A DNA stretch of 64,000 nucleotides from Pseudomonadota bacterium (GTDB taxonomy: Bacteria; Bdellovibrionota; UBA1018; CAIMNF01), in the NCBI GenBank assembly GCA_027486675.1, contig JAIXOQ010000008.1:62001-126000 (forward strand). Reading direction: 5' to 3'. This document shows positions 21,587 to 57,040 of this stretch, piece by piece (within the stretch, counting starts at the first letter, position 1; the number at the start of each line of letters is the position of its first letter). A program made the position numbers and the translations under genes. A model generated the notes under the pieces. The model did no database searches. It worked only from the letters and a program-made list of their open reading frames with translations, and was not told where the DNA came from.

Positions 21587-22324
21587 GTGAGTCTGAGAAT
21601 AGTTTTTCTGCTGCTCCTCCTCTTTATTCAGTCTTCCCTGCCTGAGTACACTGCTCAAGCCGCGCCATTACCGAAGCTTGAAGACCTGGTGATCACTCGG
21701 CTCAGTGAGGAGTTCGAACTCAATTTATTCTACCTGCTCGGCGAGGGTGAGTTTTGCATGAGTGCAGCTGAAGGCGCACCTCCTTACCTGAAGCCAGGTC
21801 GGAAGCTACTTGCGCGCATCCACCTGGAAGTGCAGAGCGCCCGCGAAGCCATGGCCGTGAAAGAAAACCCAAGTCTGATCGAGGTTCAGCGTCAGTATTA
21901 TTTCTTTAAGCGACATTGGGATCCTTCAGCAATGATGGAGCTCAGAAAATTCATGTTGCCCCACGAGTTTCTCAACCTCCCACCACCCGCTCCCGAGGTC
22001 TATAGAGAAACACAGAGGAAGCGTGTCGACCGAGCGAGGCCGGTCCTAGAGACAGCTCTCCTCATTCAAGATGGGAGCTACGTTCTTGGGAGCAGGCTCG
22101 CGCAGCAAACGGGGTCCATCAGCCTTTTGGATGCCTTTGAGCTGTTTGTGACACGGATGCGTGAGGGGAGTGCGCTCGCATCCCGAGAGAACTTTAAAGA
22201 AAAGAGTATTGCGGACGCCTACCGACTGGCAGAGGGCCACAAAGAAGAAGAGAGCGTTAATTTTTCGACGCTCGTTGGCTTTATCGACGGCTATTTTCAG
22301 TCCCTCATGAAGCGCGGCCTCTAA
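21587..22324 (+). CDS. Secreted hypothetical protein, GTG start behind a G8 tract
   Basis: Signal peptide-like MSLRIVFLLLLLFIQSSLPEYTAQA; ORF spacing consistent with co-transcription with upstream CDS. Confidence 0.65.
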   Translation: MSLRIVFLLLLLFIQSSLPEYTAQAAPLPKLEDLVITRLSEEFELNLFYLLGEGEFCMSAAEGAPPYLKPGRKLLARIHLEVQSAREAMAVKENPSLIEVQRQYYFFKRHWDPSAMMELRKFMLPHEFLNLPPPAPEVYRETQRKRVDRARPVLETALLIQDGSYVLGSRLAQQTGSISLLDAFELFVTRMREGSALASRENFKEKSIADAYRLAEGHKEEESVNFSTLVGFIDGYFQSLMKRGL

Positions 22325-40749: not shown

Positions 40750-41331
40750 ATGGCGTACAAGCAAATCGCACTTCCAGGGTTTGAAAGAGAATTCTCTCGT
40801 AGTCATTTCGGTGGTTCTCTTCTTAAGGGCAATCCTCGCGATGCTCGCCCTATTGCGGTGAAGAGGCCTATGCATTTGGTGCTTAAGTCTAAGAAAGCTA
40901 CGGGTGCGCGGTCATTTCTTGCTCCTGCTCGGGCGGCGGCAATACTGATTTTAGTCAATCGCGTCGCACGTCTGCATGGCATTAAAATCCATCGCTACGC
41001 CAATGGCGGCAATCATCTGCATTTGGTCGTTCAATCGCCATCTCGTGCTGCATTCCAAAGGTTTTTACGGGGTACGACCGGCGTAATCGCTCGGATGACT
41101 CTGGGACGGGAGCGCGGGAAGGCACTTGGTCCTACACAGGCCGCTTCAAATAATCCCGGTGGAGCCGATCTTCCAGGTGGGGCCGCATTCTGGGACGCGC
41201 GTCCCTTCACCCGCATCATCGAGTGGGGGCGGGACTTTAAGCGCACCAATGATTACGTGATCAAGAACACGCTTGAAGCACTGGGCTTTGTTTCTTATGC
41301 AGCAAGGCGATCGCGCCCGCGCGGAGGTTAG
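40750..41331 (+). CDS. REP-associated tyrosine transposase-like (RAYT / Y1_Tnp), copy 1
   Basis: RPMHLVLKSKKA, HUH motif NHLHLVVQ, candidate catalytic Tyr RTNDYVIKNTLEALG; near-identical to 47772-48359. Confidence 0.85.
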   Translation: MAYKQIALPGFEREFSRSHFGGSLLKGNPRDARPIAVKRPMHLVLKSKKATGARSFLAPARAAAILILVNRVARLHGIKIHRYANGGNHLHLVVQSPSRAAFQRFLRGTTGVIARMTLGRERGKALGPTQAASNNPGGADLPGGAAFWDARPFTRIIEWGRDFKRTNDYVIKNTLEALGFVSYAARRSRPRGG

Positions 41332-41407: not shown

Positions 41408-42808
41408 GTGGTTTATCTCGGTTTCTGGTTTTTCGCTTTCAACTCAAATGCAGCGCCAGATCCTAGTTATTTGACTTTAGATCAGCGCATCTCTGAGTAT
41501 TCTTCTGACCCGGACTGTTGCGAGTATCAATACTTCAAGCTTTTCAAAGACGGGACTCCAGATTCGGCTAAAGAAACGACAGGAGCGAGTGCCCCCACTG
41601 CGATCCCTGAATCTTGGAAGAAAGTAGTGTCCTCTCAGGAAAAGTTGTTTTTAAGACTACTGGAAAATACCGCACTTCAGAGCTGGGGGGCAGAGCACCT
41701 TCGCAGGTCAAAAAGAGCATGCTTTGGGGATAATGATTCCCAGAGTATCGGTGGCTTTCTTGATTCCGGTCTACTTGGGTGTGCGGCGGCCAGCGCTTCC
41801 CGATCGAAAGCCGAGTATGATTGGAAAACCTTTGAGGCCAAGAAAATGGATGCAAACGGGATCCGGTCCAGCGAAGGTCTTGTGTATCCAGCACCTCAAG
41901 TCATTGCAACGCAGGGTTTGAAGGGCGCGGCTCTAGGGGCCCAATTATTCGTCCTTGCCCATGAATCCGGACACGTCATGGACTGGATTCATCCGGACAT
42001 GCAAAGTTGCCTGAGCGGCGCCCAGTCCATTTCTGCACATGATGTTCAAGAGCTACCCGGAGACCTAGCTGTACTGAAAAAGCTCAGGGAGGAAACCATG
42101 CGCCAGAGAAAGAATCAAAATAAGTCTCACTCCGAAGTGGATCAAGGAAAAGGAACCGAATTCTATGTTTTCGCGAGGACCCTGCTCAAGTACCAAGGTC
42201 CCGAAAAAGTGAGTGCATTCTTTGAGGCCATGAGAAGTCCTTCCACGAGTGACGTGCTTCCGTTCATTTTGGCCGTTCGCGCGGAGTTCAAGAAAAAGAA
42301 TATAGATCCAGATTTAGAAAGTTTAGGGATCGGTGACTCTTGGACCGATACTTTGCCACCCTCAGCAATCAAAGAGTTATTCACCATAGAGCAAACCTTT
42401 CGAGAACTATTGGAAGGTGGCGTCTCACTGCCTGAGCAGTTTACAGAATCTGCAGCCGACTCTTTAGCAACGGCGACCCTGGCTGAGTATCTCAACACCC
42501 CAGGCTTGACTGCCGCACAAAAGAGAAGCGCTGTGGTGTCTGTTCTGAGCGCCTTTCCACCAGAACTCTACAATGATGCTGCTTTGAAAGTGATGAGAAC
42601 TGTGGGGTCGAAGCAACCCAATGAAATTCGAATGCTCAGAATTTTTCTAGCTGATCCCAAAATCAGGGCGGCCATAGGATGCCATCCTCATCCGAAGACC
42701 GAGCCTCAGCCTCGCGCATGTTTTGAAACACTGACGAAAGTCTCAATTCCTCCGAAGCCTCAGCCTATGGGAACTCGTAAAAAACCTTCAGGGGTGATCG
42801 TGAAATAG
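41408..42808 (+). CDS. Secreted HExxH metallopeptidase-like protein, paralog 1 (GTG start)
   Basis: Signal-like N-terminus, FVLAHESGHVMDWIH, later EQFTESAADSLATATLAEY, C-terminal LADPKIRAAIGCHPHP. Confidence 0.7.
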   Translation: MVYLGFWFFAFNSNAAPDPSYLTLDQRISEYSSDPDCCEYQYFKLFKDGTPDSAKETTGASAPTAIPESWKKVVSSQEKLFLRLLENTALQSWGAEHLRRSKRACFGDNDSQSIGGFLDSGLLGCAAASASRSKAEYDWKTFEAKKMDANGIRSSEGLVYPAPQVIATQGLKGAALGAQLFVLAHESGHVMDWIHPDMQSCLSGAQSISAHDVQELPGDLAVLKKLREETMRQRKNQNKSHSEVDQGKGTEFYVFARTLLKYQGPEKVSAFFEAMRSPSTSDVLPFILAVRAEFKKKNIDPDLESLGIGDSWTDTLPPSAIKELFTIEQTFRELLEGGVSLPEQFTESAADSLATATLAEYLNTPGLTAAQKRSAVVSVLSAFPPELYNDAALKVMRTVGSKQPNEIRMLRIFLADPKIRAAIGCHPHPKTEPQPRACFETLTKVSIPPKPQPMGTRKKPSGVIVK

Positions 42809-42927: not shown

Positions 42928-44639
42928 GTGGTTTATCTCATGGTCTCAAACATTTTGCTGCTTTCAGGTCTCACTGCGAACGCAGTTGAAGCCTGTAAGC
43001 GCTGCGAAGTTATCCCCTCGAAGGTGCCAACTTTAGAAACGATCTGCAAGGTACATCCAGACCTATTTTGTCAGAATGTGGATCAAGAACGAAAAAAGCC
43101 CACAGGGCATTTTGGAGACTTCTACACGTCCGTGTCTCGAAGTTTTGAAAAATTCAAAACAAGAAGCAATCAGACGGATAAGAAAATCAGTGATCTCGGA
43201 GACGAATCCCCCAAGGTACTGAGGTCCTTCGAGGGCGAAGTCGAACTTGCACTTTTGCATTATCAAGATGAGATCGAACGGTTAGAGAAAGAATCTATTG
43301 AGCCCCTTTTAAAAGAAGTGAAATCGCTTCATGCCAAGGCGATTGATCAAGCAGTCGCTGATCGAACTCTCGCAGACTCCATGAAGAATGATGTTCAAAA
43401 AGTGGAGTATCTGGGTTTTGGAAAGAACAAGAATGAACTTCTGAAATGGAAAAAGAGCGCCATCGATCCAGAGCCTCCGTCGACCCAGAGCCTCCGTCGA
43501 CCCCTGGGGGTCAGAAGAAAGAAAAGCCGCTTGCCAAGGAATTTGAAGAGCTCGCGACTTTTGAGCTCGATTTGAAGCGTGATACTGGAAGTTTCTATGG
43601 GGACTATCGGCAACACCCAGCGCCGAAGGACTACTGCGATGACTCCAAAAAATTGAAGATGCATCTATTTAAAGAAATGCCAATTTTCGACAAATTGTTT
43701 GATATGCATGATCTCCGCAAAGAACTGCTTCCCCGTCATTTCGACCAACTCCAAAAGTCAAATCATATGTTCGCGCAATATAGAGCCGTAAAATCAGGAA
43801 CCGACGATCCGTTACGGGTGGCGGTCGAAAGGTTAATGCAAAGAGACAGGATAAACTTTGAAGTGCCTGCCGAGTCCGAGAGTCCAACGAAGAAACGTTA
43901 CTGCGAATTGCGGAACAAATTGAATGCTGACCCCCGGACGAAAGAATCTTTTCTCGAGTTGATCCGATTGACCCTAGAACAGGAAAAGTGGCAGAGATAC
44001 TGTGGGGCTGCGGGCACGAAAGGGAATGCGAGTTACGTGGGTTACACCCGCTTTGATAAAATGGGTCACATTCCAGATAGCAGTCAGGCTTACTTGCCTT
44101 CATATCCTAAAGAGGATTATAGGCGAATCATTGTTTGCCCTGGTTTTGCGCTGAAAGCTAATCCGAACGATCGTACCGATCAGCTGAATAAGCTAGGGCA
44201 CATTTTGGGTCACGAGCTTGGTCACGATAATAGTACGGTTTATCACCCAAGTCTCTTTGATGCGGTCCTTCAATGTCAAAACGCGGCACATGGAAATCGT
44301 ACGGAAGACTCTGCGGATCTTTTAGGCCTTGAAACTATGCTTCAGCATCTGAATAACCTACGGGGCAAAATGACCGCTTCCCTTGTAGAGCAAGAAAAAA
44401 TCTCAGAGCAGCTCGCGGATATAGTCGCACTCGAACTTTCGGAGCTCTGCCCTGAGAAAATGGCCAAAAAAGATCCAGCGAAAGAAATAGAGGAGATTCA
44501 CGGAATACCCGATACGCACGCCGACGGTCTGGTGCGTGTTCAACGGGTCATGCAAGACCCTTATCTTCGAGGGATGCTCGGTTGCCCAGCCCTTCCGAAA
44601 GCATGTTCGCTTAGGAATTGCATTAGCAGTTGCAAATAG
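42928..44639 (+). pseudogene. Secreted HExxH metallopeptidase-like protein, paralog 2, split into two frames by a 17-bp tandem duplication
   Basis: ORFs 42820..43575 and 43446..44639; deleting one 17-bp unit joins them as ...AIDPEPPSTPGGQKKEKPLAKEF...; LGHILGHELGHDN, C-terminal DPYLRGMLGCPALPKAC. Confidence 0.8.
43468..43501. repeat. Exact 17-bp tandem duplication
   Basis: ccagagcctccgtcgac x2 (43468-43484, 43485-43501). Confidence 0.97.
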
Positions 44640-44695: not shown

Positions 44696-46540
44696 CTACT
44701 TCAGTTCGCAGTGTTTTTGTAACGGACGAACTGGGCATCCGAGTGCTTTTCGGATGCGTGGGGATGCCAGCAGAATGCGGTCGTAGCGGGTAGAGCCTTT
44801 GGCGTGAGTTTCGGAGGTGCCACCTGCAATGAGTCCACTGACTTGTTCCGAAAGGCTTCGAGTATCATTACCTATCATTTTTGAAATCCAGGGAGACTTG
44901 GGCATACAACCAGTTTGTTGATAGAGATCTTGGAGCAAAGTCTTTAGCGTTTGTTCCTCTTTTGGCGCAGTTGGACAGTATGCGTAGTAAAGACCTAGGG
45001 CCCCTGTAATGAGTTTCTTTTTTTCTTTAACTTTCAGATTGTGCTCCAACACTGTGGCTTCAAACCAATCAGCCCCCGACTCTTCGGCTTCACTGTATTG
45101 AGCGTCTATAACATCTTTACAAGCGGCCATTTCTTCGGTGAGTTCCTTGAAGATTTTTTTAGAGTCCCTAATTTCTGTAATTGTACCCTCAGGATTCTTC
45201 TCCTCTGAATGCTCCACCAGCTGACGCACCCGTCGTTCAGCATCTTTCACATGAATTTTTGCGGCTCTACGTTTGGATAGGCAGCCCTTAAGAGCCCTAA
45301 AAGGGTGGTCTTTAAACGACAACGCCCGGCTGACTACCTGGGGTGGGGCGGTATCAGAGTTGTTTAGGTGGAACGTATATCGATCGGCTTCTGATTCTGC
45401 CTGAAGGGTATCGAAAAGGTCTGATTTCCTTGGACGGCTTGAAGAGAAGTGCACGGTGTTTTGATATAGAGGCTTCCGGGTGAAACACGCGCTGGTCGCA
45501 TGACCGATCTCGTGCAGAAATATTCCATAGATTGCGTCACTCGGAAAAAGTAGGGCGGGTGAATCGATAGTGAGTTGGTGGTTATCGCGGTCGTAATGGG
45601 CATTGATCTCGGTGGTAGGTATGAATCTCAGAGAGAGCAATTGAATCCGTTCGATCATCAGCGCATACTTCGTAGATTCTTTCGGATGGCGAAGTTTTAA
45701 TGACTCAAGATAGGAAATTGAGTCATTTTTGGCATTCTCAAATGCGGATTTTGCAATAGCAGTCCTTCGCAGGATCTCTGTGACCTCATCCCGAACAAGT
45801 GGTGTGTAGTCGCCGAGACTCCCGGTCAGGGAAAGGCCAAGCATGCGTGCCGATTCTTCATCCTGGTTTGGTGCTGGGGAGTAGTTGTTTGGAACTGCAT
45901 GACTAAGCTCCAGGGATTTCAGATATTTCAAGTACTCGGACTTACAGAGTTTGATGTGGGTCTCTAAGCATTCGTAGGCTTTAGACATCTGAGGATCGAG
46001 TGATGCATCAGAGGATTTTGTAGGATTAGTGCCTGCTGGATCCTTCAGCGGCACTCCGTCGCGGCAGAGTGCGAAGTTACCGATTTCTTGCTTAGCCTTA
46101 TCCCCAAACTTCTCTACACAGCCTGCGACCGCCAAGAGATCTTGGGCAAGTGTAGTTGGGAGCATGGTCTCCTGAGGTGGACTCTTCGGCGGCTGTCGCA
46201 GGAGTAGGCATTTGCGAATTTCAAGCGTCGCCACGTGAATCGTGCTGTTGACTAAAATATCCCCATTCCCGAAGTCATGATGGATCGCAAGCGATGGGCT
46301 CTTTCTGGTTTTGCACAGTTGCTCAAGCGAGCAGAACTTCGGCGATTTCGTCTGACACAGCGGATCTGTTTCGTAAGCGCAGTCTAAGATTTCATCAGCG
46401 CGAGTCTGCAGGCAGTCTACGCAGCCCTCGGTGGGTGAGGGGGAAATGTCGGTGAAGCCATTTTGCCCCCAAGCTTCGGTCAGTGGACCACTGCCGGCTA
46501 GGATCATGAGAAGTGAGAGATTTAACCCAAATTGGCTCAC
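44696..46540 (-). CDS. Secreted HExxH metallopeptidase-like protein, paralog 3
   Basis: IFLHEIGHATSACF, EAEESGADWFEATVLE, C-terminal SPRIRKALGCPVRPLQKHCELK; signal-like N-terminus. Confidence 0.7.
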   Translation of the reverse strand: MSQFGLNLSLLMILAGSGPLTEAWGQNGFTDISPSPTEGCVDCLQTRADEILDCAYETDPLCQTKSPKFCSLEQLCKTRKSPSLAIHHDFGNGDILVNSTIHVATLEIRKCLLLRQPPKSPPQETMLPTTLAQDLLAVAGCVEKFGDKAKQEIGNFALCRDGVPLKDPAGTNPTKSSDASLDPQMSKAYECLETHIKLCKSEYLKYLKSLELSHAVPNNYSPAPNQDEESARMLGLSLTGSLGDYTPLVRDEVTEILRRTAIAKSAFENAKNDSISYLESLKLRHPKESTKYALMIERIQLLSLRFIPTTEINAHYDRDNHQLTIDSPALLFPSDAIYGIFLHEIGHATSACFTRKPLYQNTVHFSSSRPRKSDLFDTLQAESEADRYTFHLNNSDTAPPQVVSRALSFKDHPFRALKGCLSKRRAAKIHVKDAERRVRQLVEHSEEKNPEGTITEIRDSKKIFKELTEEMAACKDVIDAQYSEAEESGADWFEATVLEHNLKVKEKKKLITGALGLYYAYCPTAPKEEQTLKTLLQDLYQQTGCMPKSPWISKMIGNDTRSLSEQVSGLIAGGTSETHAKGSTRYDRILLASPRIRKALGCPVRPLQKHCELK

Positions 46541-46609: not shown

Positions 46610-47602
46610 CTAGTCTGGGTTTTGCTCAAAATAGCTCACGTCAATGAAGACTGCGGCCGCAAGAATCAGCCTCCGCTCGTCCTCTGTCAGCTTTCGACTT
46701 TTAAACTCAATGACAAAGTTATCGCGGTCGGTGAAGAGCTCGGTGAGTAAACCACTGAACCGTTTCGTGAGCTTCGCTATCTCTATTCCGTGACGGGTAA
46801 ATGCAAAAGTCCAAATTCTAAAGAATGGGGACTTCACCTCACACATCACTTCTCCTTGGACGTTCTCAATCACGAAGTATTTATGCAAGATCGCGAACCT
46901 TTGCTGAATCGCGCCTATGTAACCGCCGGATGGGTCACGAAGTTCGATCCGCTTAAACCAGAATCGAAACGGTTGGTGTAGGGTCAGCAGGAGTTTACGA
47001 CTCACACTTAAGATATGGACATCAAATGGCCGCCAATGCCCAAACCACTGTCTCATCAAAAAACTTCCAAAATCTTTGCCCTGTTCTGTCAGGAAGCCGA
47101 TTGTATTTTTCTGTTCATCATAAATGGCGTACCGATTGCGAGTTTCAAACCCTAGAAGCTCGAATGGTTCTCCGGTTTGTCGGATGAAGAGTTTTTGATA
47201 GTTGAGAAGCTCCAGTGAGTTCGGGTCTCGCCTGAATGGAGCTTCTTTGAGTTTATTTTGCTGTGCTTTTTTTAACTCTGCCTGGATGAGAGGCAATTCC
47301 TTTTGATCGAGCCAGATGCCCTTGCAGGTCGTGCAGTAGTCGATATCGGTTCTTTGCTGATTAGAGATCGGAAAGGCTACGAGCTTAGTTTCCGGATTGC
47401 TGCATGTGGGACACGGAAGTCGTGTTTCCTTAGATTGGGAATAAGCAAAGCTTGGGTCAGGTAGGTCTTGATCTGCGTTACAGCTCTTCGCAAGAACTCC
47501 TGCTTTCAGCCACATGCCGCGGCACTGAGAGCACAGGTCGATCGTATTCCTGGCGTCGAGCGGGTAGTCGTAAAGCGCAGTATTGCATTTTGGGCATCTC
47601 AT
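46610..47602 (-). CDS. Two N-terminal zinc ribbons (zf-TFIIB-like) fused to a phospholipid scramblase/LURP-like domain
   Basis: MRCPKCNTALYDYPLDARNTIDLCSQCRGMWLKAG; CPTCSNPETKLVAF...IDYCTTCKGIWLDQKEL; then YQKLFIRQTGEPFELLGFETRNRYAIYDEQ...RPFDVHILSVSRKLLLTLHQPFRFWFKRIELRDPSGGYIGAIQQRFAILHKYFVIENVQGEVMCEVKSP. Confidence 0.75.
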   Translation of the reverse strand: MRCPKCNTALYDYPLDARNTIDLCSQCRGMWLKAGVLAKSCNADQDLPDPSFAYSQSKETRLPCPTCSNPETKLVAFPISNQQRTDIDYCTTCKGIWLDQKELPLIQAELKKAQQNKLKEAPFRRDPNSLELLNYQKLFIRQTGEPFELLGFETRNRYAIYDEQKNTIGFLTEQGKDFGSFLMRQWFGHWRPFDVHILSVSRKLLLTLHQPFRFWFKRIELRDPSGGYIGAIQQRFAILHKYFVIENVQGEVMCEVKSPFFRIWTFAFTRHGIEIAKLTKRFSGLLTELFTDRDNFVIEFKSRKLTEDERRLILAAAVFIDVSYFEQNPD

Positions 47603-47771
47603 CTTGGTCTCTTTGGGACTTTATCGGAGATGGCTTCAGCTTGTCTATGGGTGAGGAACCTTTCCTGGTATCCCACAATTGGACCCGAGTCATTTCAAGG
47701 ATTGTTTGTCTTTGTTTTCACAGAATCATTTGACATCGCTGAAGCCTCGCGCAATTCTGATGGGGCAGGTC

Positions 47772-48359
47772 ATGTCACAAAAGCAAACAGCACTCCCTGG
47801 GTTTGAGAAAGAATTCTCTCGTAGTCATTTCGGTGGTTCTCTTCTTAAGGGCAATCCTCGCGATGCTCGCCCCATTGCAGTGAAGCGGCCTATGCATTTG
47901 GTGCTGAAGTCTAAGAAGGCTACGGATGCGCGGTCATTTCTTGCTCCCGCTCGCGCGGCTGGGATTTTGATTTTAGTCAATCGCGTCGCACGTCTGCATG
48001 GCATTAAAATCCATCGTTATGCCAATGGCGGGAATCATCTGCATTTAATCATTCAGGCGCCATCTCGGTCGGCATTCCAAAGATTTCTACGCGGGACGAC
48101 AGGCGTGATTGCCCGGATGACTCTGGGGCGGGAGCGCGGGAAGGCGCTTGCTTTGGATGGAAAAGCTACTTTAGGAAGGGATGCCGTCAGTCAGGGCCAA
48201 GGTGCCTCGTCCGCATTCTGGGACGCGCGCCCCTTCACCCGCATCATCGAATGGGGACGGGACTTTAAGCGCACGAATGACTACGTGATCAAGAACACGC
48301 TCGAAGCACTGGGCTTTGTTTCTTATACAGCAAGGCGATCGCGCCCTCGCGGAAGTTAG
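47772..48359 (+). CDS. REP-associated tyrosine transposase-like (RAYT / Y1_Tnp), copy 2
   Basis: Near-identical to 40750..41331 apart from a variable linker; NHLHLIIQ, RTNDYVIKNTLEALG. Confidence 0.85.
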   Translation: MSQKQTALPGFEKEFSRSHFGGSLLKGNPRDARPIAVKRPMHLVLKSKKATDARSFLAPARAAGILILVNRVARLHGIKIHRYANGGNHLHLIIQAPSRSAFQRFLRGTTGVIARMTLGRERGKALALDGKATLGRDAVSQGQGASSAFWDARPFTRIIEWGRDFKRTNDYVIKNTLEALGFVSYTARRSRPRGS

Positions 48360-48365
48360 GAGATT

Positions 48366-49724
48366 CTACTGGGCAGCTTTTGCCCGAAGTTTCATCTCCT
48401 GTTCGCCGACTCCCTTGAGCTTCGAATACAGATGATCGACAGACTGCTGAATTGACTTTTTCGCCCGCGTGCCCGTGTCATCACCTGCAGCTTTTGCCTC
48501 GGCCGTTGCACGACTCCCAGACTGAGACTGACGGTATGCTTCAGCCTCTAGGAGCCTAGAGATGAGTTGTTGTGCATGGTCGTGCCGTAACGCTAGGGCT
48601 TCGGCAATAATATTGGCTTGTGATGATTCGGGTTCCTGGTCGGCTATTTCGCTGAGTGGCTTTCTGATCATCTCAATCTCACGCCTCAAAAGCTCCACCC
48701 TTAAGGCTAAGTTCCAAATGGATGCTGCCGAACTATCGCCCTTTGCCTTCAGTGCATTCAGTGCCTCTTTAACTTCTGCTTGAAGCACCACTAGTTCCCA
48801 TGCACCCAGTTGGACGGCATCGACAAGCGAGACAGATCCTGATGCAACTTGGTTCGGAAGGGTCCCATCGAAGTAAACGTCTTTTAAGAGTAAGCCCTCG
48901 GGTGGTTGGGCCACGAGGGGGCTGACCGTTGTTACATGCGAAGTAGAAAGAAGTGGATCAATGACACTACGAACCCACGCGTTGCCCAGAACATGGCCGC
49001 CGGCGATGCCACTCAAAATAGCACTAGGGATAATCAGAAGTAGGTGCATGTCGGCGAATACGTGAGCCATCGCACCCGTAAATCCGCCAAGTAGACCAAA
49101 AAAAAGAGGCCCTGACCACTTGGAGGGGTTCCTCGCACGGATTTTCTTCTCCAGCCAAAGTCGCTCTGCTTTTGGAAGCGTCACAAATGCTGTCGCCGCA
49201 ATTTTCACCGCAGCCTCCGCGTACTGGAATTGCCTTCGAGCTAAACTGAGTGTGCCGGGTTGATCCTCAACCAGACCAAAGTGTTTTTTGAGCTCCTTCT
49301 GCCATTGATTTCTTTCGTAGTTGACGCGGTCATCAGATGTTTTCCTTGTAAACAGCTGAAGATCCACTGAACTCAAAAGAGTCCCCATATCATTCTTTGA
49401 GTGGTGGTCAGGCGAATCGGTGCTTCTGATGAGATATTCTTTAAATGCATCCATCCCATTATCAGTGACGATACTACCCGCTAGGTGAGCGCGCAGTGGA
49501 AGCGACATGCTTTCTACCACTGCCAACCACTTCACGTTTTCTTGAGCTGTTTCTAAAATCGCTTTCTGTAGCGACGCGGACCCTTCAGCTGCCTTCACGC
49601 AAGCCTCTGTCACAGCTTGGTTTGCTAGCTTTTTCAGCAGCTCATCCTCTGGTTGGGTCGCATGCGACAGCGGCTGGATGGCGAGGAAAATGCCTAGAAA
49701 AATGGCAGTAGTTTTATAAAGCAT
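48366..49724 (-). CDS. Tandem exported Gly-hairpin protein family, member P1
   Basis: Signal peptide; EACVKAAEGSASLQKAILETAQENVKWLAVV; hairpin GPLFFGLLGGFTGAMAHVF...AILSGIAGGHVLG; ASGSVSLVDAVQLGAWELVVLQAE. Confidence 0.85.
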   Translation of the reverse strand: MLYKTTAIFLGIFLAIQPLSHATQPEDELLKKLANQAVTEACVKAAEGSASLQKAILETAQENVKWLAVVESMSLPLRAHLAGSIVTDNGMDAFKEYLIRSTDSPDHHSKNDMGTLLSSVDLQLFTRKTSDDRVNYERNQWQKELKKHFGLVEDQPGTLSLARRQFQYAEAAVKIAATAFVTLPKAERLWLEKKIRARNPSKWSGPLFFGLLGGFTGAMAHVFADMHLLLIIPSAILSGIAGGHVLGNAWVRSVIDPLLSTSHVTTVSPLVAQPPEGLLLKDVYFDGTLPNQVASGSVSLVDAVQLGAWELVVLQAEVKEALNALKAKGDSSAASIWNLALRVELLRREIEMIRKPLSEIADQEPESSQANIIAEALALRHDHAQQLISRLLEAEAYRQSQSGSRATAEAKAAGDDTGTRAKKSIQQSVDHLYSKLKGVGEQEMKLRAKAAQ

Positions 49725-49888
49725 ATGTGCGGAACCTTAACGATAAAGCCATGCGTAAGCAAGAGTTAGGTTTGAGGTGAATGATTAGACTTGAGACGGA
49801 GTTCGTCTCTATTTCCTAAGGTCCATTGCTTCCTGTTTCCCTGGGACGGTCACACTTCTGCGGGCTGTGGACGCCAGCGCTGCTGGGG

Positions 49889-51148
49889 CTAAGGTTTTAT
49901 ACCCGCGATTCCCTCGCGGCGTTTCATTTCCTGGGTGGCGGCTTGTTCTAACTCAAGCAAAAACTCTTCCTGGTTCACCTCAGGGTTCATCCTATTTATG
50001 ACATCTACTAGGAGTGTCTGAGCCCTTTTGTCTCGCGTCGCAATCGCATCCAGTAAAGTCCCTACAACATCAAGCTGTCCGAAATCGTGATCCTGGCGGA
50101 CCGCATCGTGTACTTTGTACGCGAGATCCATCAGCTCAAGAGTGTAAATACGAATTTTCAGGGCGAGTGCGCCGCTGGTTTCTTTTGCTGCTCTGGTTTC
50201 TGACTCAAGTACTGCAAGTTCCCATGCGCCAATCTGTGCGGCATCGATGAGAGAGACAGATCCGGAGGCTAAACGATCAGGAAAGGACGATTCAGAAAGA
50301 ACGCTTGTTAGATTTAGAGTCTGGTTGGGTTGAAGCAATAGACCACCATAGCTTTGGAGCTGTGCCGTAGTGAGGAGTGGTGCAGTGAATGCGCTTAACC
50401 ACATTTTATCCCCAATCCCTTTGCCAATCTTTGTACCCAGATACCCACCTAATAACATCCATGTAAAGATGCTGACTCGTGGGACTAGGGCGCTTGCTAA
50501 TCCACCGGCGACCACACCAATGACTGTGCCAACGGCGGCGCTATTCTCTCGAGTTGGATTGAGCTCAAAGATCTTCTTCTCCAGGCTCTTTCGGTTTGCC
50601 TTTGGAAGCGTCACAAAAGCAGTTGCGGCGATTCTTACCGCTGCTTGTACATACTGGAACCTTTTCCGATCTAGACTCTCTGCGTTTTCCTGAACACTGC
50701 TGATGTCAAAATATCTTTTGAGTTCATTTTTCCACTCAGTCAGTTCGTAAGATAGGCGCTTATTTGAATTTCTCCTCAAAGTGATTAAATGGAGTTCAAC
50801 ATTTTCTAAAAGGGCATCTAGTTCAGTTGGAGGGTGATCTAGGGATTCAGTGTGGGCGATGAGATAGTCTTTGAAAGTCTCAAATCCATCACTTGTACTA
50901 AGATTCGACGCCAACTGCACTCGCAACTCGGGACTCATCGCACTGACCACAGAAAGCCACTTCACGTTTTCTTCGGCTGTTTCTAAAATCGCTTTCTGCA
51001 GGGATGCGGATCCTTTAGAAATTTCAAAGCAAGCCTTCTCTATTGCATGATTTGCTACCTTCTTCAGCAGCTCATCGTTTGTCGCATGCGCCAACGGCTG
51101 AAGGGCGAAGAAGAGACCTAAGGAAAGCGCAGTAGCTTTTAGAAACAT
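49889..51148 (-). CDS. Tandem exported Gly-hairpin protein family, member P2
   Basis: KACFEISKGSASLQKAILETAEENVKWLSVV; GTVIGVVAGGLASALVP...LLGGYLGTKIGKGIG; ASGSVSLIDAAQIGAWELAVLESE. Confidence 0.85.
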   Translation of the reverse strand: MFLKATALSLGLFFALQPLAHATNDELLKKVANHAIEKACFEISKGSASLQKAILETAEENVKWLSVVSAMSPELRVQLASNLSTSDGFETFKDYLIAHTESLDHPPTELDALLENVELHLITLRRNSNKRLSYELTEWKNELKRYFDISSVQENAESLDRKRFQYVQAAVRIAATAFVTLPKANRKSLEKKIFELNPTRENSAAVGTVIGVVAGGLASALVPRVSIFTWMLLGGYLGTKIGKGIGDKMWLSAFTAPLLTTAQLQSYGGLLLQPNQTLNLTSVLSESSFPDRLASGSVSLIDAAQIGAWELAVLESETRAAKETSGALALKIRIYTLELMDLAYKVHDAVRQDHDFGQLDVVGTLLDAIATRDKRAQTLLVDVINRMNPEVNQEEFLLELEQAATQEMKRREGIAGIKP

Positions 51149-51357
51149 GTTGGTCAAAACGCTAGCGTTAAAATGAGTAGTGTGACAACAGATAAGGTCA
51201 TATGAATGATAAGGATTGAAGGGTAGTTCGCCTCTTGAACCAAAGTCTATTTCTTCTTACCCGGACAGCCGAGGGCAAAATTTGATGCCTGTGCACTCTC
51301 ATGGCGATCACTCGATTCACTCCTCTCTCGCTGTTGGTTTCCAGCCCCTCCCTTTTT

Positions 51358-52701
51358 TTATATGTCCCACGCGCGCATCAGCGCATCAGCGCGTTTGATG
51401 TTCTCAAGTCGCTGTTCCGGTTTGATTAACTCATCAATCATTCGGTCTGCTTTATCGAGCCGCACACGGAGCACATCTTCAGCAGGATCCGGGATATGCA
51501 ATTTTCTCCGTGCAGCGGCTTTGTAGTTTTCTTGGACTCTGATGATCTTACGCCTATAAAGTTCAAGTTCTAATGCCAAGTCCAATTTGGCCGCAGAGGT
51601 TAGTTCGGTTACGGCTTCTGCCTCAAGCACGGCTAACTCCCATGCTCCTAGCTGAACGGCACCGATGAGCGAGACCTTTTGCGAATATGGAAGCAGCGTC
51701 AAAGTAGAGGAGAAGGAGACCGAGGACAACGCCAGTTTATCGGGAAAAGCTTCGTCGAGGTAAACGTCTTTTAAGAGCAGTCCTTGGGGCGGAGGGTATC
51801 CGTTCCGAGCTTGATATACTTTTCTGAATCCTCCGAGGTCCTCGCTGATAGTAATGTCGAGTGTAACGGACCTAGCTTCCTGCAATAGCGGGGCGCTGGT
51901 TGTGACCTGCGCGGCGGAGAGAAGTTGAGAAGTTGCTTTGCGCAACCATTTGTTGCTCGCAATCCAATATCCCAAAACACCACCACCGAAGACAAAAGGT
52001 ATCGCACTCGTCGGATCGAGGCTGCCCGGGAACAGTTTGTAAAGCACCACATCGGCCGCAAGACCGAGTATCGCGCCATAAATCGCTCCATTATCGGCTG
52101 TCGGGCTGATCATGCGGAGCATAAACTCTACGCGTTTTCTATCGGCTTTTGGCAGAGTTGCGAATGCAGTCGAAGTGATTCTTACAACTGCCTCTGCATA
52201 TTGGAATTGTCTTTGGGCTAAACTGAGGTCGTTCGGTTGGTCTGAGGCGAGGCCGAAGTGGTGCCTGAGCTCTGCTTTCCATTCCCTGAGTTCATAATTC
52301 AGGCGGTCATCAGAACTTTTGCCCGAGGTCATAAGATTGAGGTCAACATTCTTACTGAGCGCCTCGGCTTCGCTCGGGGTTTCGTCCGGGTATCCGAGTT
52401 TGTTCTTGAGATAGTCTTTGAATATTGAAAATCCGGACTCGGTAGCAAGATTCTCGGCTAAATGCACCCTTAACTCGAGCGACATGCTCATCACCACTGC
52501 AAGCCACTTCACGTTTTCTTGGGCTGTTTCTAGAATCGCTTTTTGCAGCGAGGCGGCCCCTTTGGCAACTTCATAGCAACCCTTCTCTATCGATTGGTTT
52601 GCTAGCTTTTTCAGAACCTCATCGTCTGCTTTGGTCGCATGCGCCGGTGGCGTGAGAGCAAAGAAAAGACCGAAGGAAAGCGCAGCAGCTTTTAAAACCA
52701 T
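51358..52701 (-). CDS. Tandem exported Gly-hairpin protein family, member P3 (with insertions)
   Basis: KGCYEVAKGAASLQKAILETAQENVKWLAVV; GAIYGAILGLAADVVL...FVFGGGVLGYW; KVSLIGAVQLGAWELAVLEAE. Confidence 0.85.
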   Translation of the reverse strand: MVLKAAALSFGLFFALTPPAHATKADDEVLKKLANQSIEKGCYEVAKGAASLQKAILETAQENVKWLAVVMSMSLELRVHLAENLATESGFSIFKDYLKNKLGYPDETPSEAEALSKNVDLNLMTSGKSSDDRLNYELREWKAELRHHFGLASDQPNDLSLAQRQFQYAEAVVRITSTAFATLPKADRKRVEFMLRMISPTADNGAIYGAILGLAADVVLYKLFPGSLDPTSAIPFVFGGGVLGYWIASNKWLRKATSQLLSAAQVTTSAPLLQEARSVTLDITISEDLGGFRKVYQARNGYPPPQGLLLKDVYLDEAFPDKLALSSVSFSSTLTLLPYSQKVSLIGAVQLGAWELAVLEAEAVTELTSAAKLDLALELELYRRKIIRVQENYKAAARRKLHIPDPAEDVLRVRLDKADRMIDELIKPEQRLENIKRADALMRAWDI

Positions 52702-52862
52702 GATGGCCAGAACACTAACGTTAAAACGAGGTGCATGAAAGAGATAAGTTAGAGTGAATGATAAGACTTTAGTCTGGTGTCGTCCCTTGAATCAAAGCCT
52801 TCTTCATGTTGCATGGACAATCGAGAGCACACTTCGATGCTCCGCTTGAGCACTCACGAAGG

Positions 52863-54140
52863 TTAGGGGAGTCGCTTCCCTCGGGTTGGTAGAGGCCATA
52901 TTCTGCTTTCTACACGGCCCACTTGGTCGTCGACGGAACGAATCATTTGAAGCCGCTGATCTTGTGTGATTAGCGAGTCTATCAATTTATCCACCTTTTT
53001 TAGACGCATACGGAGTACGTCATCTGCGGGATCAGGGATTCTCACCCCTCCCGCCTGAGCAGCGTCATAGTAGTTGTCCCGAAGCTTGATCAGTTGACGC
53101 GCATAGAGTTCAATTCTCAGTGCTAAGTCTGATCTTGCTTCAGGGCTTAGATCGGCCACGCTTGCTTCTGCCTCAAGCACGGCTAGCTCCCATGCACCCA
53201 CCTGCACGGCATCGACGAGAGAGACAGAGCCGGATGCGACTTGTTCTGCAAAGGACTCTTCGGTCAGTGCGTCTTGTAGCTTTCTGGTTATTTTGTTGTC
53301 AGCAAACGTTATGCCGTTCTCAGGGCTTAGGTCCGACAACAAACGGAGTTTGACATTCAGTTCTTTCTGCCATGGATCAGCTTTGGGCTTAAGCCCCAGA
53401 TAAATGAGAGCAGTACCAACTGCCGACCCGCCCCCCGAAAAGATCAGTGCGTGTGCGGGGTCAATTGAACCACCCAGTACAAGCCCAATGAGTCCACCGA
53501 TCGAACCCCCAAAGAGGATACTAAATCCAAGTGATCCCTGAGGAGCGGGGCGCAAAACGCGCACCTGACTCATCCATTTGTTCATTGCAGCTTTTGGTTG
53601 AGTCGCCCAACAAATTGTTATGATTTTTAATATTGAATCGACATACTCAAGATGCGCTTTTGTTAAGTCCTCCGCGCTGATTGTCTTATCCGAAAAACCT
53701 AGCCGATGCTTAATCTCGCTGTCCCAAAGTTCTTTTTCAGTACCCAGTGCTTCATTCTTCGTGGTTTCCCAATCGAAGAGATCTTGAGTTCGATCAAAGA
53801 GCTGCTTGATTCTTATTGGGTAGTCTTCTGTTAGCTGGCTTAACTTCAAAAAGTCCTCAACCAAACTAATGCCTTCTGCTCCTGATATCTTTTCTACAAG
53901 ATGTGTTCGCAGTTCTGAGCTCATCGCGTTCACAACGGCAATCCACCTCACGTTTTCTTGTGCACTTTCGAAGATCGCTTCCTGAAGGGAAAGCTTACCC
54001 TCAGCAACTATCCCACAAGCATCGGCGTTGGCTTTTTCTGCAAGGTTCTTCAGCAGTTCATCGTACGCTTTGGTCGCATGAGCCGGTGGCGTTAGAGCAA
54101 AGAAAAGACTTAAGAAGATACAGGCTATTCTCATGTGCAT
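52863..54140 (-). CDS. Tandem exported Gly-hairpin protein family, member P4
   Basis: DACGIVAEGKLSLQEAIFESAQENVRWIAVV; FSILFGGSIGGLIGLVLGG...FSGGGSAVGTAL; ASGSVSLVDAVQVGAWELAVLEAE. Confidence 0.85.
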   Translation of the reverse strand: MHMRIACIFLSLFFALTPPAHATKAYDELLKNLAEKANADACGIVAEGKLSLQEAIFESAQENVRWIAVVNAMSSELRTHLVEKISGAEGISLVEDFLKLSQLTEDYPIRIKQLFDRTQDLFDWETTKNEALGTEKELWDSEIKHRLGFSDKTISAEDLTKAHLEYVDSILKIITICWATQPKAAMNKWMSQVRVLRPAPQGSLGFSILFGGSIGGLIGLVLGGSIDPAHALIFSGGGSAVGTALIYLGLKPKADPWQKELNVKLRLLSDLSPENGITFADNKITRKLQDALTEESFAEQVASGSVSLVDAVQVGAWELAVLEAEASVADLSPEARSDLALRIELYARQLIKLRDNYYDAAQAGGVRIPDPADDVLRMRLKKVDKLIDSLITQDQRLQMIRSVDDQVGRVESRIWPLPTRGKRLP

Positions 54141-54255
54141 GATGGCCAGTAAAGTAACATTAACTCTCAGTCAGCACAATCAAAGAACTCAACAGTTATT
54201 GATTCTGTTTATTTCCATTGCTGGACTTTCCTGACGCGTAGGGAATTAGGGAATA

Positions 54256-55530
54256 CTATCCTTTGCTTGCTTGCTTGCGGAGTCGCATTTCTGCATCCGC
54301 AGCTTCATCCAGGACTCTAAGTTTGGCCTGATCTTCTATCAAATGACGACTCAGAGTTATTGCTTCTTTGAGCCGGTTTTCCAATGCCTTCTTTGCAGCA
54401 GCGAATATGGGTATACCCGATGCCTCAGTGGTATTGAAGTTTGCAACTAACTCCCCCAGGTCACGCGCTAAAAGTTCAGCTCTCAGTGCTAAGTCCCATT
54501 TCGCTTCAGGACTAATGTCCTTTGCTTCCGACCCAGCAACTAGGACCGCAAGCTCCCATGCGCCCAGTTGTACGGCATCGACGATTGAGGCGGCGCCGGA
54601 GGCTAGTTCTTTTGGAAAGTTGCTATTCCAGAAGACGTCGATCAGGCGTAGCCCCTGGGCTGGTGCAACACGAGAGGTCGAGAGAGGAGTAAATGTGCTG
54701 ACCTGTGAAGTCCCGATGAGTTCAGGGGCGACATTTCTGCCCTCTCTCTTGTTTCGAGTTTGAATTTTGAGGTGGATACCGACTGCTGCAGCGGCACCGA
54801 GAATACCACCTACGGCTCCCGCGACTATGGCCGCTGGCACAGTGACATATCCTTCGGCTGTATTGCCCAAAACTGCATGAATGAAGAACCCACAAAAACC
54901 AACGATGAAGCTAAATGTAACACTTCCTGTAACATCTTTCGGTGGATCACTCGGAATGAGCATTCTTATGTCGGTCGGAAGTGTAACAAATGCAGTCGCT
55001 GCGATTTTCACTACTGCCTCCGCATATTGGAGCTTTCTGCGATTAACACTCAGGATGCTTTTTGAATTGGTGGATAAGCCAAAGTGATCCTTCAGCGCAG
55101 TTTTCCATTCAGTCAATTCATATTCGAGTTGCCGGGTAGGGTTCTTTCCGAGTGTCATCAATTTCTCTTCGACATCGGCCGTAAGTACCTCAATATCCTC
55201 TGCGAAATTATCGGGCGCATTGTTCTTCCGAGCATTGAGATATGAGTAAAAAACACGTGACCCATCCAAGCCAACAAGATTAGATGCTAGGTGAGTTCTT
55301 AACTGAGTTGACATGCTCTTTGCGACTGCAAGCCACTTCACGTTTTCTTTTGCCTTCTGAATGAGAGCCACCTTGAGTGACATCGCCCCTTCTGCCGTGA
55401 AGTTGCAAGCCTCGGTAATGGATTCATCTGCCAGTTGCTGCAGAGCCAGATCGTCCGCTTTGCCCGCATGCGCCAGCGGGGTGAGAGCAAAGAGCAGGCC
55501 TAGAGAAACATAGACTGTTTTAAGAAACAT
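54256..55530 (-). CDS. Tandem exported Gly-hairpin protein family, member P5
   Basis: EACNFTAEGAMSLKVALIQKAKENVKWLAVA; FSFIVGFCGFFIHAVLG...AAIVAGAVGGILGAAAAV; ASGAASIVDAVQLGAWELAVLVAG. Confidence 0.85.
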   Translation of the reverse strand: MFLKTVYVSLGLLFALTPLAHAGKADDLALQQLADESITEACNFTAEGAMSLKVALIQKAKENVKWLAVAKSMSTQLRTHLASNLVGLDGSRVFYSYLNARKNNAPDNFAEDIEVLTADVEEKLMTLGKNPTRQLEYELTEWKTALKDHFGLSTNSKSILSVNRRKLQYAEAVVKIAATAFVTLPTDIRMLIPSDPPKDVTGSVTFSFIVGFCGFFIHAVLGNTAEGYVTVPAAIVAGAVGGILGAAAAVGIHLKIQTRNKREGRNVAPELIGTSQVSTFTPLSTSRVAPAQGLRLIDVFWNSNFPKELASGAASIVDAVQLGAWELAVLVAGSEAKDISPEAKWDLALRAELLARDLGELVANFNTTEASGIPIFAAAKKALENRLKEAITLSRHLIEDQAKLRVLDEAADAEMRLRKQASKG

Positions 55531-55536
55531 AAAAGA

Positions 55537-56898
55537 CTACTTCAATCCGAGCTGCGCCTTGCGAAGGTCCATTTCTTGCTGTGCTGCATTCTCAAGCGCC
55601 CATTGTAGTTTCGTCTTCCGGTGGTGGACTGATTGATCAGGCTGAGCGCTGGCCACTAACCCGTCGATGGAGCCATTGCCTTCCTCTGAAGCCAGGAATT
55701 CTTCCTCCTTGAATATCAGCATTGAGCTGAGTCTTTTTGCCTGATTCCCCCTTAACTCTAGTGCTTTAGCAATGGTTTGAAGTTCTGGTGATTGTGGGAA
55801 TCTGTCTTCATACTCTTTTATAATCCTGACTATCTGGCCCAGCTCGAAATACAAAAGCTCCACTCTCAAGGCCAAGTTCCAGACTGACTTTTTGGATTCC
55901 TGAAAAGCCTGTGTCGCCTCATCTTGAAGCACGGAAAGCTCCCATGCCCCGAGCTGGACTCCGTCCAGGAGTGAGATATAAGAAGACGCTACTTGTTCTG
56001 GGAAGGATCGATCGCCATAGACCTCGCTTAAAGATAAACCCTTAGACGGTTGAACAAGGGTTGGGCCCAAAGTTGAGATTGGCGAACTAGAAATGATGGG
56101 CGTAGTTAACTCATGCAACAAAATCCTGTAACTGCGCACCTTACCAAGGAGTCTGCCTGCAATAACTCCCACAATTGTGCCAGCCGATGAGAATGGCCCA
56201 AGCCCAACATAGTTGAGCAGCGCAACATCGAGCGCGAAACCAACGGAAAGCCCGATGGCACCACCGTATAAGCCACCCCGTGTGATCACATTCGTATTTC
56301 TGAAAGGTTCTAACTCCATTTTTGCGGTATTATCCCAGGTTTCTCTAGTCGCTTTTGGAAGTGTTACGAATGCGGCCGCCGTAATACGAAATATTGCGTC
56401 CACATATTGAAATTGTCTTCGGGCTAAGCTGAGAGTGCTTGCTTGACCGTATGCAAGTTCAAAACGCCGCTCGAGTTCCTTCCGCCATTGCTGTTTTTCA
56501 TATCTCAGGTGATCGGACCGGGGCGTACTAAAATAACTGCGGACCGAGTGATAGACATTCTCGATTTGCTCAGAATTGTGATCAGGCGACTTTGTTTTCA
56601 AATCGAGATACGTTTTAAAATGATTGAATCCGGAACGATTAGCGAGTCGCAGTGCGAGCTCTGTTCTGAGCTGTGCCGACATGCTTTCCACCGCAGCAAG
56701 CCACCTCACGTTTTCTTTCTCAGTTTTTAAGATCGCTTCTTGCAGGGATAGGTTGCCTTCCGCAGCCTTCACGCAAGCCTCTTGGATCGCTTGTTTGGAT
56801 AGCTCCTTAACCAGCTCGTCTTCCACCGGTTCCGCATGCGACAGAGGTGTGATGGCAAAGAACAGGCCTAACAAACTAGCAGCACTCTTAAAGGACAT
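55537..56898 (-). CDS. Tandem exported Gly-hairpin protein family, member P6
   Basis: EACVKAAEGNLSLQEAILKTEKENVRWLAAV; GGLYGGAIGLSVGFALDVAL...AGTIVGVIAGRLLG; SYISLLDGVQLGAWELSVLQDE; start at internal ATG 56898 restores signal peptide. Confidence 0.85.
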   Translation of the reverse strand: MSFKSAASLLGLFFAITPLSHAEPVEDELVKELSKQAIQEACVKAAEGNLSLQEAILKTEKENVRWLAAVESMSAQLRTELALRLANRSGFNHFKTYLDLKTKSPDHNSEQIENVYHSVRSYFSTPRSDHLRYEKQQWRKELERRFELAYGQASTLSLARRQFQYVDAIFRITAAAFVTLPKATRETWDNTAKMELEPFRNTNVITRGGLYGGAIGLSVGFALDVALLNYVGLGPFSSAGTIVGVIAGRLLGKVRSYRILLHELTTPIISSSPISTLGPTLVQPSKGLSLSEVYGDRSFPEQVASSYISLLDGVQLGAWELSVLQDEATQAFQESKKSVWNLALRVELLYFELGQIVRIIKEYEDRFPQSPELQTIAKALELRGNQAKRLSSMLIFKEEEFLASEEGNGSIDGLVASAQPDQSVHHRKTKLQWALENAAQQEMDLRKAQLGLK

Positions 56899-57040
56899 AT
56901 TGACCGGGAACTTAACTGTTAGATGAGGTGTGTGGCAATAGATAAGTTTATGTGAATGATAGAAGTTGTAGGATATAACGCAAATTTTCACTTAGAACAT
57001 GAAAATTTGCGTCAGATTTTCATTACACGCAAAGCCCAGC

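What the first reader, a model, noticed from the sequence alone, without database searches (positions are those of the whole stretch)
48366..56991. Tandem array of six paralogous exported proteins of unknown function with a divergent Gly-rich transmembrane hairpin
Seen: six consecutive minus-strand genes of about 420-455 aa each have a signal peptide, a conserved N-terminal block (DELLKKLANxAxxxAC...SLQxAIxxxAxENVKWLAVVxxMSxxLRxHLA), a middle block (RxFQYAEAxVKIAATAFVTLPKA), a hydrophobic Gly-rich double segment whose sequence differs in every copy, then a conserved block (ASGSVSLVDAVQLGAWELAVLEAE) and a charged C-terminal helix region. I recognise no known family. Inference: this is a locally amplified membrane-inserting family in which the hairpin is the diversifying part. 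Candidate roles include pore/channel, toxin-like, cell-cell interaction or envelope functions; the sequence does not tell which.
Basis: partly seen in the sequence, partly recalled or inferred. Interest (0 to 1): 0.87.

Follow-up and report, generated by a model that had tools for sequence, protein, structure and literature searches.

The report
Exported hairpin protein family, six tandem
A relative of predatory Bdellovibrio, known only from DNA, carries eleven related exported all-helical proteins, six of them in a row, that match no known protein family and probably act on membranes through a glycine-rich helical hairpin; the target and purpose are still unknown.

Summary
Six intact minus-strand genes (48366-56898, 419-453 aa, 32-47% identical) encode Sec-signal, all-helical proteins with a central hydrophobic hairpin. 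They match nothing significant in Pfam, NCBIfam, PADLOC, PHROGs, the PDB (sequence or fold) or BFVD. Two additions: the family is larger (five dispersed, more divergent copies; four keep the hairpin, one lacks it), and no member was found in 373 other genomes of the phylum. The hairpin is the least conserved part (22% identity against 53-64% in two conserved blocks, with no positional homology left), yet all six array copies keep a glycine zipper in it; the dispersed copies do not. Hairpin tips are acidic and the flanks basic, the wrong way round for an ordinary exported inner-membrane hairpin. One cysteine is invariant in all eleven. I favour a lineage-restricted family whose hairpin inserts into, and self-associates in, a membrane from the exported side (about 0.4); attack on other cells is possible but unproven. 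In passing: a second, unrelated tandem array in the same genome has the same layout, and exported proteins here are enriched for a single cysteine near the mature N-terminus (held-out test, p about 1e-5 against three relatives).

The parts
48366..49724 (-). copy w1, 452 aa, signal peptide, single Cys42
49889..51148 (-). copy w2, 419 aa (AlphaFold2 model md413f4fe806f, pLDDT 80.6, pTM 0.74, all-helical)
51358..52701 (-). copy w3, 447 aa, inserts in linker and block 3
52863..54140 (-). copy w4, 425 aa, most divergent array member
54256..55530 (-). copy w5, 424 aa
55537..56898 (-). copy w6, 453 aa (ATG at 56898 preferred over GTG at 56991)
48978..49109 (-). hairpin of w1 (residues 206-249), glycine zipper, tip DMH
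50423..50539 (-). hairpin of w2 (residues 204-242), glycine zipper, tip PRVSI
51958..52089 (-). hairpin of w3 (residues 205-248), glycine zipper, tip PGSLDPTS
53391..53534 (-). hairpin of w4 (residues 203-250), glycine zipper, tip GSIDPAH
54775..54921 (-). hairpin of w5 (residues 204-252), glycine zipper, tip NTAEG
56143..56277 (-). hairpin of w6 (residues 208-252), glycine zipper, tip GPF
51190..51211 (-). conserved upstream element before w2 (TATCATTCATATGACCTTATCT)
52742..52763 (-). conserved upstream element before w3 (0 expected in shuffles)
56940..56961 (-). conserved upstream element before w6
49778..49785 (-). core ATCATTCA of the same element before w1

Best explanation
A lineage-restricted family (eleven genes in this Bdellovibrionota genome, six in tandem) of Sec-exported proteins made of two all-helical domains joined by a central hydrophobic hairpin. 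After export the helical domains stay on the exported side of a membrane. The hairpin inserts into that membrane tip-first and, in the array copies, self-associates through its glycine zipper, giving homo- or hetero-oligomers. The single conserved cysteine may allow disulfide-linked pairs. Duplication and drift keep the helical frame and the hairpin's composition but not its sequence, giving a set of related membrane-active proteins. Shown: the genes, orphan status, signal peptides by sequence, helical model, hairpin hydrophobicity, zipper, invariant Cys. Inferred: insertion, orientation, oligomerisation, role.
For: Signal peptide and two adjacent hydrophobic segments in 10 of 11 members. All six array hairpins hold a glycine zipper as defined in PMC12744356; strict GxxxGxxxG in 5 members, shuffle P 0.005; the looser pattern over all ten hairpins P 0.06. 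The zipper is kept although residue positions are not conserved, so packing ability rather than sequence seems selected. Purifying selection on the frame: two blocks 53-64% identical while synonymous sites are far diverged. Hairpin tips: 2 K/R and 10 D/E; flanks K/R-rich: a tip without positive charge suits insertion from outside rather than the positive-inside arrangement. All-helical model with hairpin helices 200-219 and 227-262.
Against: No experiment. The hairpin is only marginally hydrophobic and could be buried in the fold. Dispersed copies lack the zipper and L011 lacks the hairpin, so neither is essential to the whole family. The model rests on 11 sequences, and a second model (L007) has low confidence exactly in the hairpin. 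Zipper statistics rest on six related genes. No immunity-like gene lies in or beside the array, which argues against a toxin role.
Confidence: 0.4

Rival explanations
1. Ordinary inner-membrane-anchored envelope proteins: the hairpin is two conventional transmembrane helices that anchor two periplasmic helical domains, serving as structural or scaffold subunits.
For: Signal peptide plus hairpin puts both domains in the periplasm; no immunity gene nearby. The second, unrelated array (L131) has the same layout with K/R in the loops, as a conventional hairpin would.
Against: In this family the tip carries 2 K/R and 10 D/E while flanks are basic, against the positive-inside rule; insertion energies are weak.
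Confidence: 0.28
2. Membrane-depolarising or pore-forming weapons used against other cells, working like glycine-zipper toxins (TelE/EsxX type) or like multi-component alpha pore-forming toxins, with the array a repertoire of components.
For: Exported, paralogous, tandem, central hydrophobic hairpin, glycine zipper in all six; lineage-restricted fast divergence; phylum known for predation. Zipper-mediated insertion and depolarisation is the model supported for EsxX (PMC12744356).
Against: No match to HBL, HlyE or other toxin models; Foldseek hits to HblL1 and AhlB are non-significant (E 0.7 and 1.1, TM about 0.1); no immunity gene; no evidence that this species is a predator.
Confidence: 0.18
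3. Soluble periplasmic proteins in which the hydrophobic hairpin is a buried core or binds a lipid or other hydrophobic ligand.
For: Marginal hydrophobicity; one member without hairpin still keeps the rest of the family signature.
Against: The hydrophobic segments are the least conserved part, unusual for a buried core; glycine zippers favour helix-helix packing in membranes.
Confidence: 0.14

Closest known systems
Glycine-zipper membrane toxins (EsxX, TelE, TspA of type VIIb secretion; PMC12744356)
   Same: Exported proteins with an extended glycine zipper in a hydrophobic helical stretch; proposed membrane insertion and oligomerisation.
   Different: No LXG domain, no T7SS context, no immunity genes, zipper central rather than C-terminal; Sec signal peptide; no sequence match; toxicity untested here.
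ClyA-like alpha pore-forming toxins, tripartite Hbl/Nhe/Ahl/Smh (PMC6162564)
   Same: All-helical, hydrophobic membrane-active region in mid-sequence, paralogous components (side-by-side genes: from general knowledge).
   Different: No Pfam match; Foldseek not significant; model helices are short (mostly 6-28 residues outside the hairpin) rather than a long five-helix bundle; six near-equal copies plus dispersed ones.
Lineage-specific protein families of predatory Bdellovibrionota (PMC11656739)
   Same: Lineage-specific families and duplications in the same phylum.
   Different: Those highlighted include peptidoglycan enzymes with known domains; this family has no known domain and was found in one genome only.
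Second tandem array in the same genome (L131, C13:328396-334202)
   Same: Exported paralogues, conserved flanks, divergent central hydrophobic hairpin, orphan.
   Different: No detectable homology (hhalign probability 2.4%); loops carry K/R; four copies, 270-346 aa.

Membership tests
ClyA/HBL alpha pore-forming toxin family | Match to family sequence models | tested here: not met
   No HBL/HlyE model among Pfam hits up to E=1 for any of the eleven members
ClyA/HBL alpha pore-forming toxin family | Five-helix-bundle fold shared by all components | tested here: not met
   Foldseek PDB: 7nmq E 0.70, 6grj E 1.1, TM about 0.1; nothing at E<=0.001. Rests on a predicted model
ClyA/HBL alpha pore-forming toxin family | Pore formation in target membranes | not testable with these tools
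   Needs biochemistry
Glycine-zipper membrane toxins | (G/A/S)xxxGxxxG or GxxxGxxx(G/S/T) within a hydrophobic helix | tested here: met
   All six array copies; none of four dispersed hairpins
Glycine-zipper membrane toxins | Secretion-specific N-terminal domain (LXG) or T6SS/T7SS context | tested here: not met
   Only a Sec signal peptide; no such domain in the proteins or their immediate neighbours
Glycine-zipper membrane toxins | Cognate immunity gene nearby | tested here: not met
   Gaps of 6-209 bp between copies are too short for a gene of usual size; flanks are a Y1-transposase-like gene, a scramblase and an EpmA-like gene
Glycine-zipper membrane toxins | Toxic, depolarises membranes | not testable with these tools
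   Needs expression assay
Pfam glycine-zipper families (e.g. PF13441) | Score above the curated cut-off | tested here: not met
   PF13441 13.4 bits against cut-off 28.9, one copy only
Conventional inner-membrane hairpin proteins | Positive-inside charge distribution | tested here: not met
   Loops K/R 2, D/E 10; flanks K/R-rich

The most novel reading that the evidence does not exclude
The family belongs to a larger, genome-specific class of exported proteins marked by one cysteine just after the signal peptide, often as CxxxxEG. That segment would be a sorting or maturation signal for unrelated cargo (helical hairpin proteins, a ClpA-like AAA+ ATPase, a copy fused to the C-terminal domain of an aromatic amino acid hydroxylase), delivering it beyond the periplasm, for example into an ATP-containing prey or host cell.
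Probability: 0.07. Interest if true: 0.88.

Novelty: new variant of a known kind. Interest (0 to 1): 0.52.

Why it matters
It is an orphan exported family, large for a 2.7-Mb genome, in a phylum known for predation. It offers a ready set of natural variants in which the scaffold is constant and the putative membrane-active hairpin changes freely while keeping a glycine zipper, a good system for asking what a membrane-inserting hairpin really needs. The genome-wide excess of exported proteins with a single N-terminal cysteine, and the second array with the same layout, suggest a poorly known export or envelope system in this lineage.

Tried and rejected
Known family by profile (Pfam, NCBIfam, PADLOC, PHROGs): nothing significant; the only real hit was the fused C-terminal domain in L008. 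Solved or viral fold: nothing at E<=0.001. Relatives: none in the class or in 373 other phylum genomes; two hits at E 0.005 judged noise; the named-genome scan found none. Same place in relatives: the FAD-protein neighbour of L007 is conserved in the family but no family member sits beside it there. Gene conversion: no pair significant after 15 tests (lowest p 0.0375). dN/dS: not attempted, synonymous sites near saturation. Common origin with the second array: rejected at profile level. CxxxxEG motif as a general export tag: strong in the first 920 kb (9 non-family hits near the N-terminus against 1 in 78,844 residues elsewhere) but only one hit in the held-out 379 kb, so only the single-N-terminal-Cys excess is claimed.

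Full report
WHAT IS THERE. Six consecutive minus-strand ORFs occupy 48366-56898. They align over their whole length with 33-46% identity to the first copy (A1). Each has a signal peptide with an AHA-type cleavage site, a conserved N-terminal block (53% mean pair identity), a variable middle (31%), the QFQYAEAxVKIAATAFVTLPKA-type block (48%), the hydrophobic hairpin (22%), a linker (33%), the ASGSVSLVDAVQLGAWELAVLEAE block (64%) and a variable charged C-terminus (29%). Four copies (w1, w2, w3, w6) share an upstream element (TATCATTCAC..AACTTATCT; whole-pattern matches upstream of w2, w3 and w6 against 0 expected by shuffling, and its core ATCATTCA upstream of w1), so at least some may be transcribed from their own start (inference; it could also be a relic of duplication).

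THE FAMILY IS LARGER THAN THE ARRAY. The host genome (2.70 Mb, 33 contigs; the window is contig 28, 62001-126000) holds five more members: L007 (C23), L008 (C33), L009 (C28:7419), L010 (C12) and L011 (C13), found with the array profile at E 2e-22 to 1e-5 and then matched over most of their length with the 11-member profile, which they helped to build. All-against-all comparison of exported proteins in the sampled genome returns the same eleven as one cluster. Four residues are invariant in all eleven, including one cysteine (C42 in w1); it is the only cysteine of the mature chain in seven of the eleven (the other Cys of L010 lies in its signal peptide). L011 lacks the hairpin. L008 carries at its C-terminus (residues 402-551) the C-terminal domain of the long-type aromatic amino acid hydroxylase (NF010657 E 1e-23 and PDB 7vgm E 8e-18).

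NOT FOUND ELSEWHERE. No member was found in the other genomes of the order or class or among 373 other genomes of the phylum (two hits at E 0.005 are noise), and the named-genome scan with A1 found none. The same search method readily finds a conserved neighbour protein in 13 of the 14 other genomes of the same family, so the method works; a very diverged relative could still be missed. COX1 matches (up to 79%) place the host among uncultured 'Oligoflexia'/Bdellovibrionales MAGs.

SELECTION. At positions where two copies have the same residue, codons agree in 46-54% of cases in the conserved blocks, against about 30% if synonymous sites were saturated, but in 24% against 26% expected in the hairpin. 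Four-fold sites tell the same story (0.45 and 0.44 in the N-terminal block and block 3, 0.25 in the hairpin, 0.25 at random). The frame is therefore old but under purifying selection; in the hairpin, aligned identities are compositional and no positional homology is left. No gene-conversion tract is significant. This supports 'the hairpin varies most', not 'the hairpin is under diversifying selection'.

HAIRPIN. Two neighbouring hydrophobic segments occur in ten members; approximate insertion energies (scale quoted from memory, same-window controls) lie between membrane and soluble controls (the second segment of L008 is weak). All six array hairpins contain a glycine zipper in the sense of PMC12744356, none of the four dispersed ones; strict GxxxGxxxG in five members has shuffle P 0.005, the looser pattern over all ten P 0.06. 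Tips hold 2 K/R and 10 D/E, flanks are rich in K/R. For a protein whose whole mature part is exported, an ordinary inner-membrane hairpin should have the positive charges at the tip, so insertion from the exported side, or burial, is at least as likely (inference).

STRUCTURE. AlphaFold2 on the 11-row alignment gives an all-helical model of w2 (pLDDT 80.6, pTM 0.74; hairpin helices 200-219 and 227-262). A second model, of L007, repeats the helix order but is unreliable in the hairpin (pLDDT 63.5); the two are not independent, since the alignment is the same set. Foldseek finds nothing at E<=0.001 in the PDB or BFVD.

MECHANISM. Best reading: exported helical proteins whose hairpin enters a membrane and, in the array copies, self-associates by the glycine zipper (0.4). 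Rivals: conventional envelope anchors (0.28), membrane-attacking weapons (0.18), soluble ligand-binding proteins (0.14). The weapon reading has precedent in zipper toxins (PMC12744356) and multi-component alpha pore-forming toxins (PMC6162564), but no toxin model, fold or immunity gene supports it.

WIDER OBSERVATIONS. A second tandem array of four exported orphans (L131, C13:328396-334202) has the same layout, conserved flanks around a divergent hydrophobic hairpin, with no homology to this family and no match in 56 other genomes. In sampled stretches of the host genome (about 1.3 Mb), 38 of 315 non-family exported proteins with fewer than three TM segments have a single Cys located at mature residues 4-41, against 6 of 299 in three relatives (p 6e-7); in the held-out stretches alone 14 of 97 (p 1e-5). 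The signal-peptide finder is a simple home-made rule, so these counts are relative, not absolute. One such protein is an apparently exported ClpA-like AAA+ ATPase (L183:957-2537; AAA_2 E 3e-26), odd for an ATP-free periplasm. The tighter motif CxxxxEG was striking in the first sample but did not clearly replicate, so it is recorded only as a lead.

Noticed in passing
L131:8396-14202 (G000:C13:328396-334202): Second tandem array of four exported orphan paralogues with conserved flanks and a divergent central hydrophobic hairpin (loops K/R-containing); unrelated in sequence to the window family; no match in 56 other genomes of the class.
   Followed up: partly
host genome samples L108-L112, L127-L146, L171-L190, L231-L250: Exported proteins with exactly one Cys located at mature residues 4-41 are enriched (38/315) over three relatives (6/299), replicated in held-out stretches (14/97).
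   Followed up: partly
window 21587-22324; L112 2027, 10301; L130 7414; L171 16535; L173 7721; L177 15344; L183 888, 2541; L247 15983: Short motif Cxxx[ASVGT]EG just after the signal peptide in otherwise mostly unrelated exported proteins; strong in the first sample, one hit in the held-out sample.
   Followed up: partly
L183:957-2537 (G000:C23:110957-112537): ClpA-like AAA+ ATPase with an apparent signal peptide and CVIVAEG motif, next to other single-Cys exported proteins; best matches in relatives over the AAA region are mostly long, about 780-aa Clp-type frames at 34-37% identity.
   Followed up: partly
L008:259-1932 (-) / L109:4287-5960 (-): Family member fused to the C-terminal domain of long-type aromatic amino acid hydroxylase (NF010657, PDB 7vgm).
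   Followed up: partly
window 40750-41331 and 47679-48359 (+): Two similar copies (89-94% DNA identity in the matched stretches) of a Y1/REP-associated-transposase-like gene (by motif recalled, no Pfam match) flank a group of exported proteins; the second ends 7 bp from the array. Could have helped local duplication.
   Followed up: no
window 41408-42808 (+), 43446-44639 (+), 44696-46540 (-): Three neighbouring proteins, at least one with an apparent signal peptide, with HExxH-type motifs (HESGH, HELGH, HEIGH) and a shared 'GCPxxP'-like C-terminal motif, no Pfam match: possibly another local zincin-like family.
   Followed up: no
window 46610-47602 (-): Bacterial scramblase-domain protein (PF03803, E 5e-38) with two TFIIB-type zinc ribbons at its N-terminus.
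   Followed up: no
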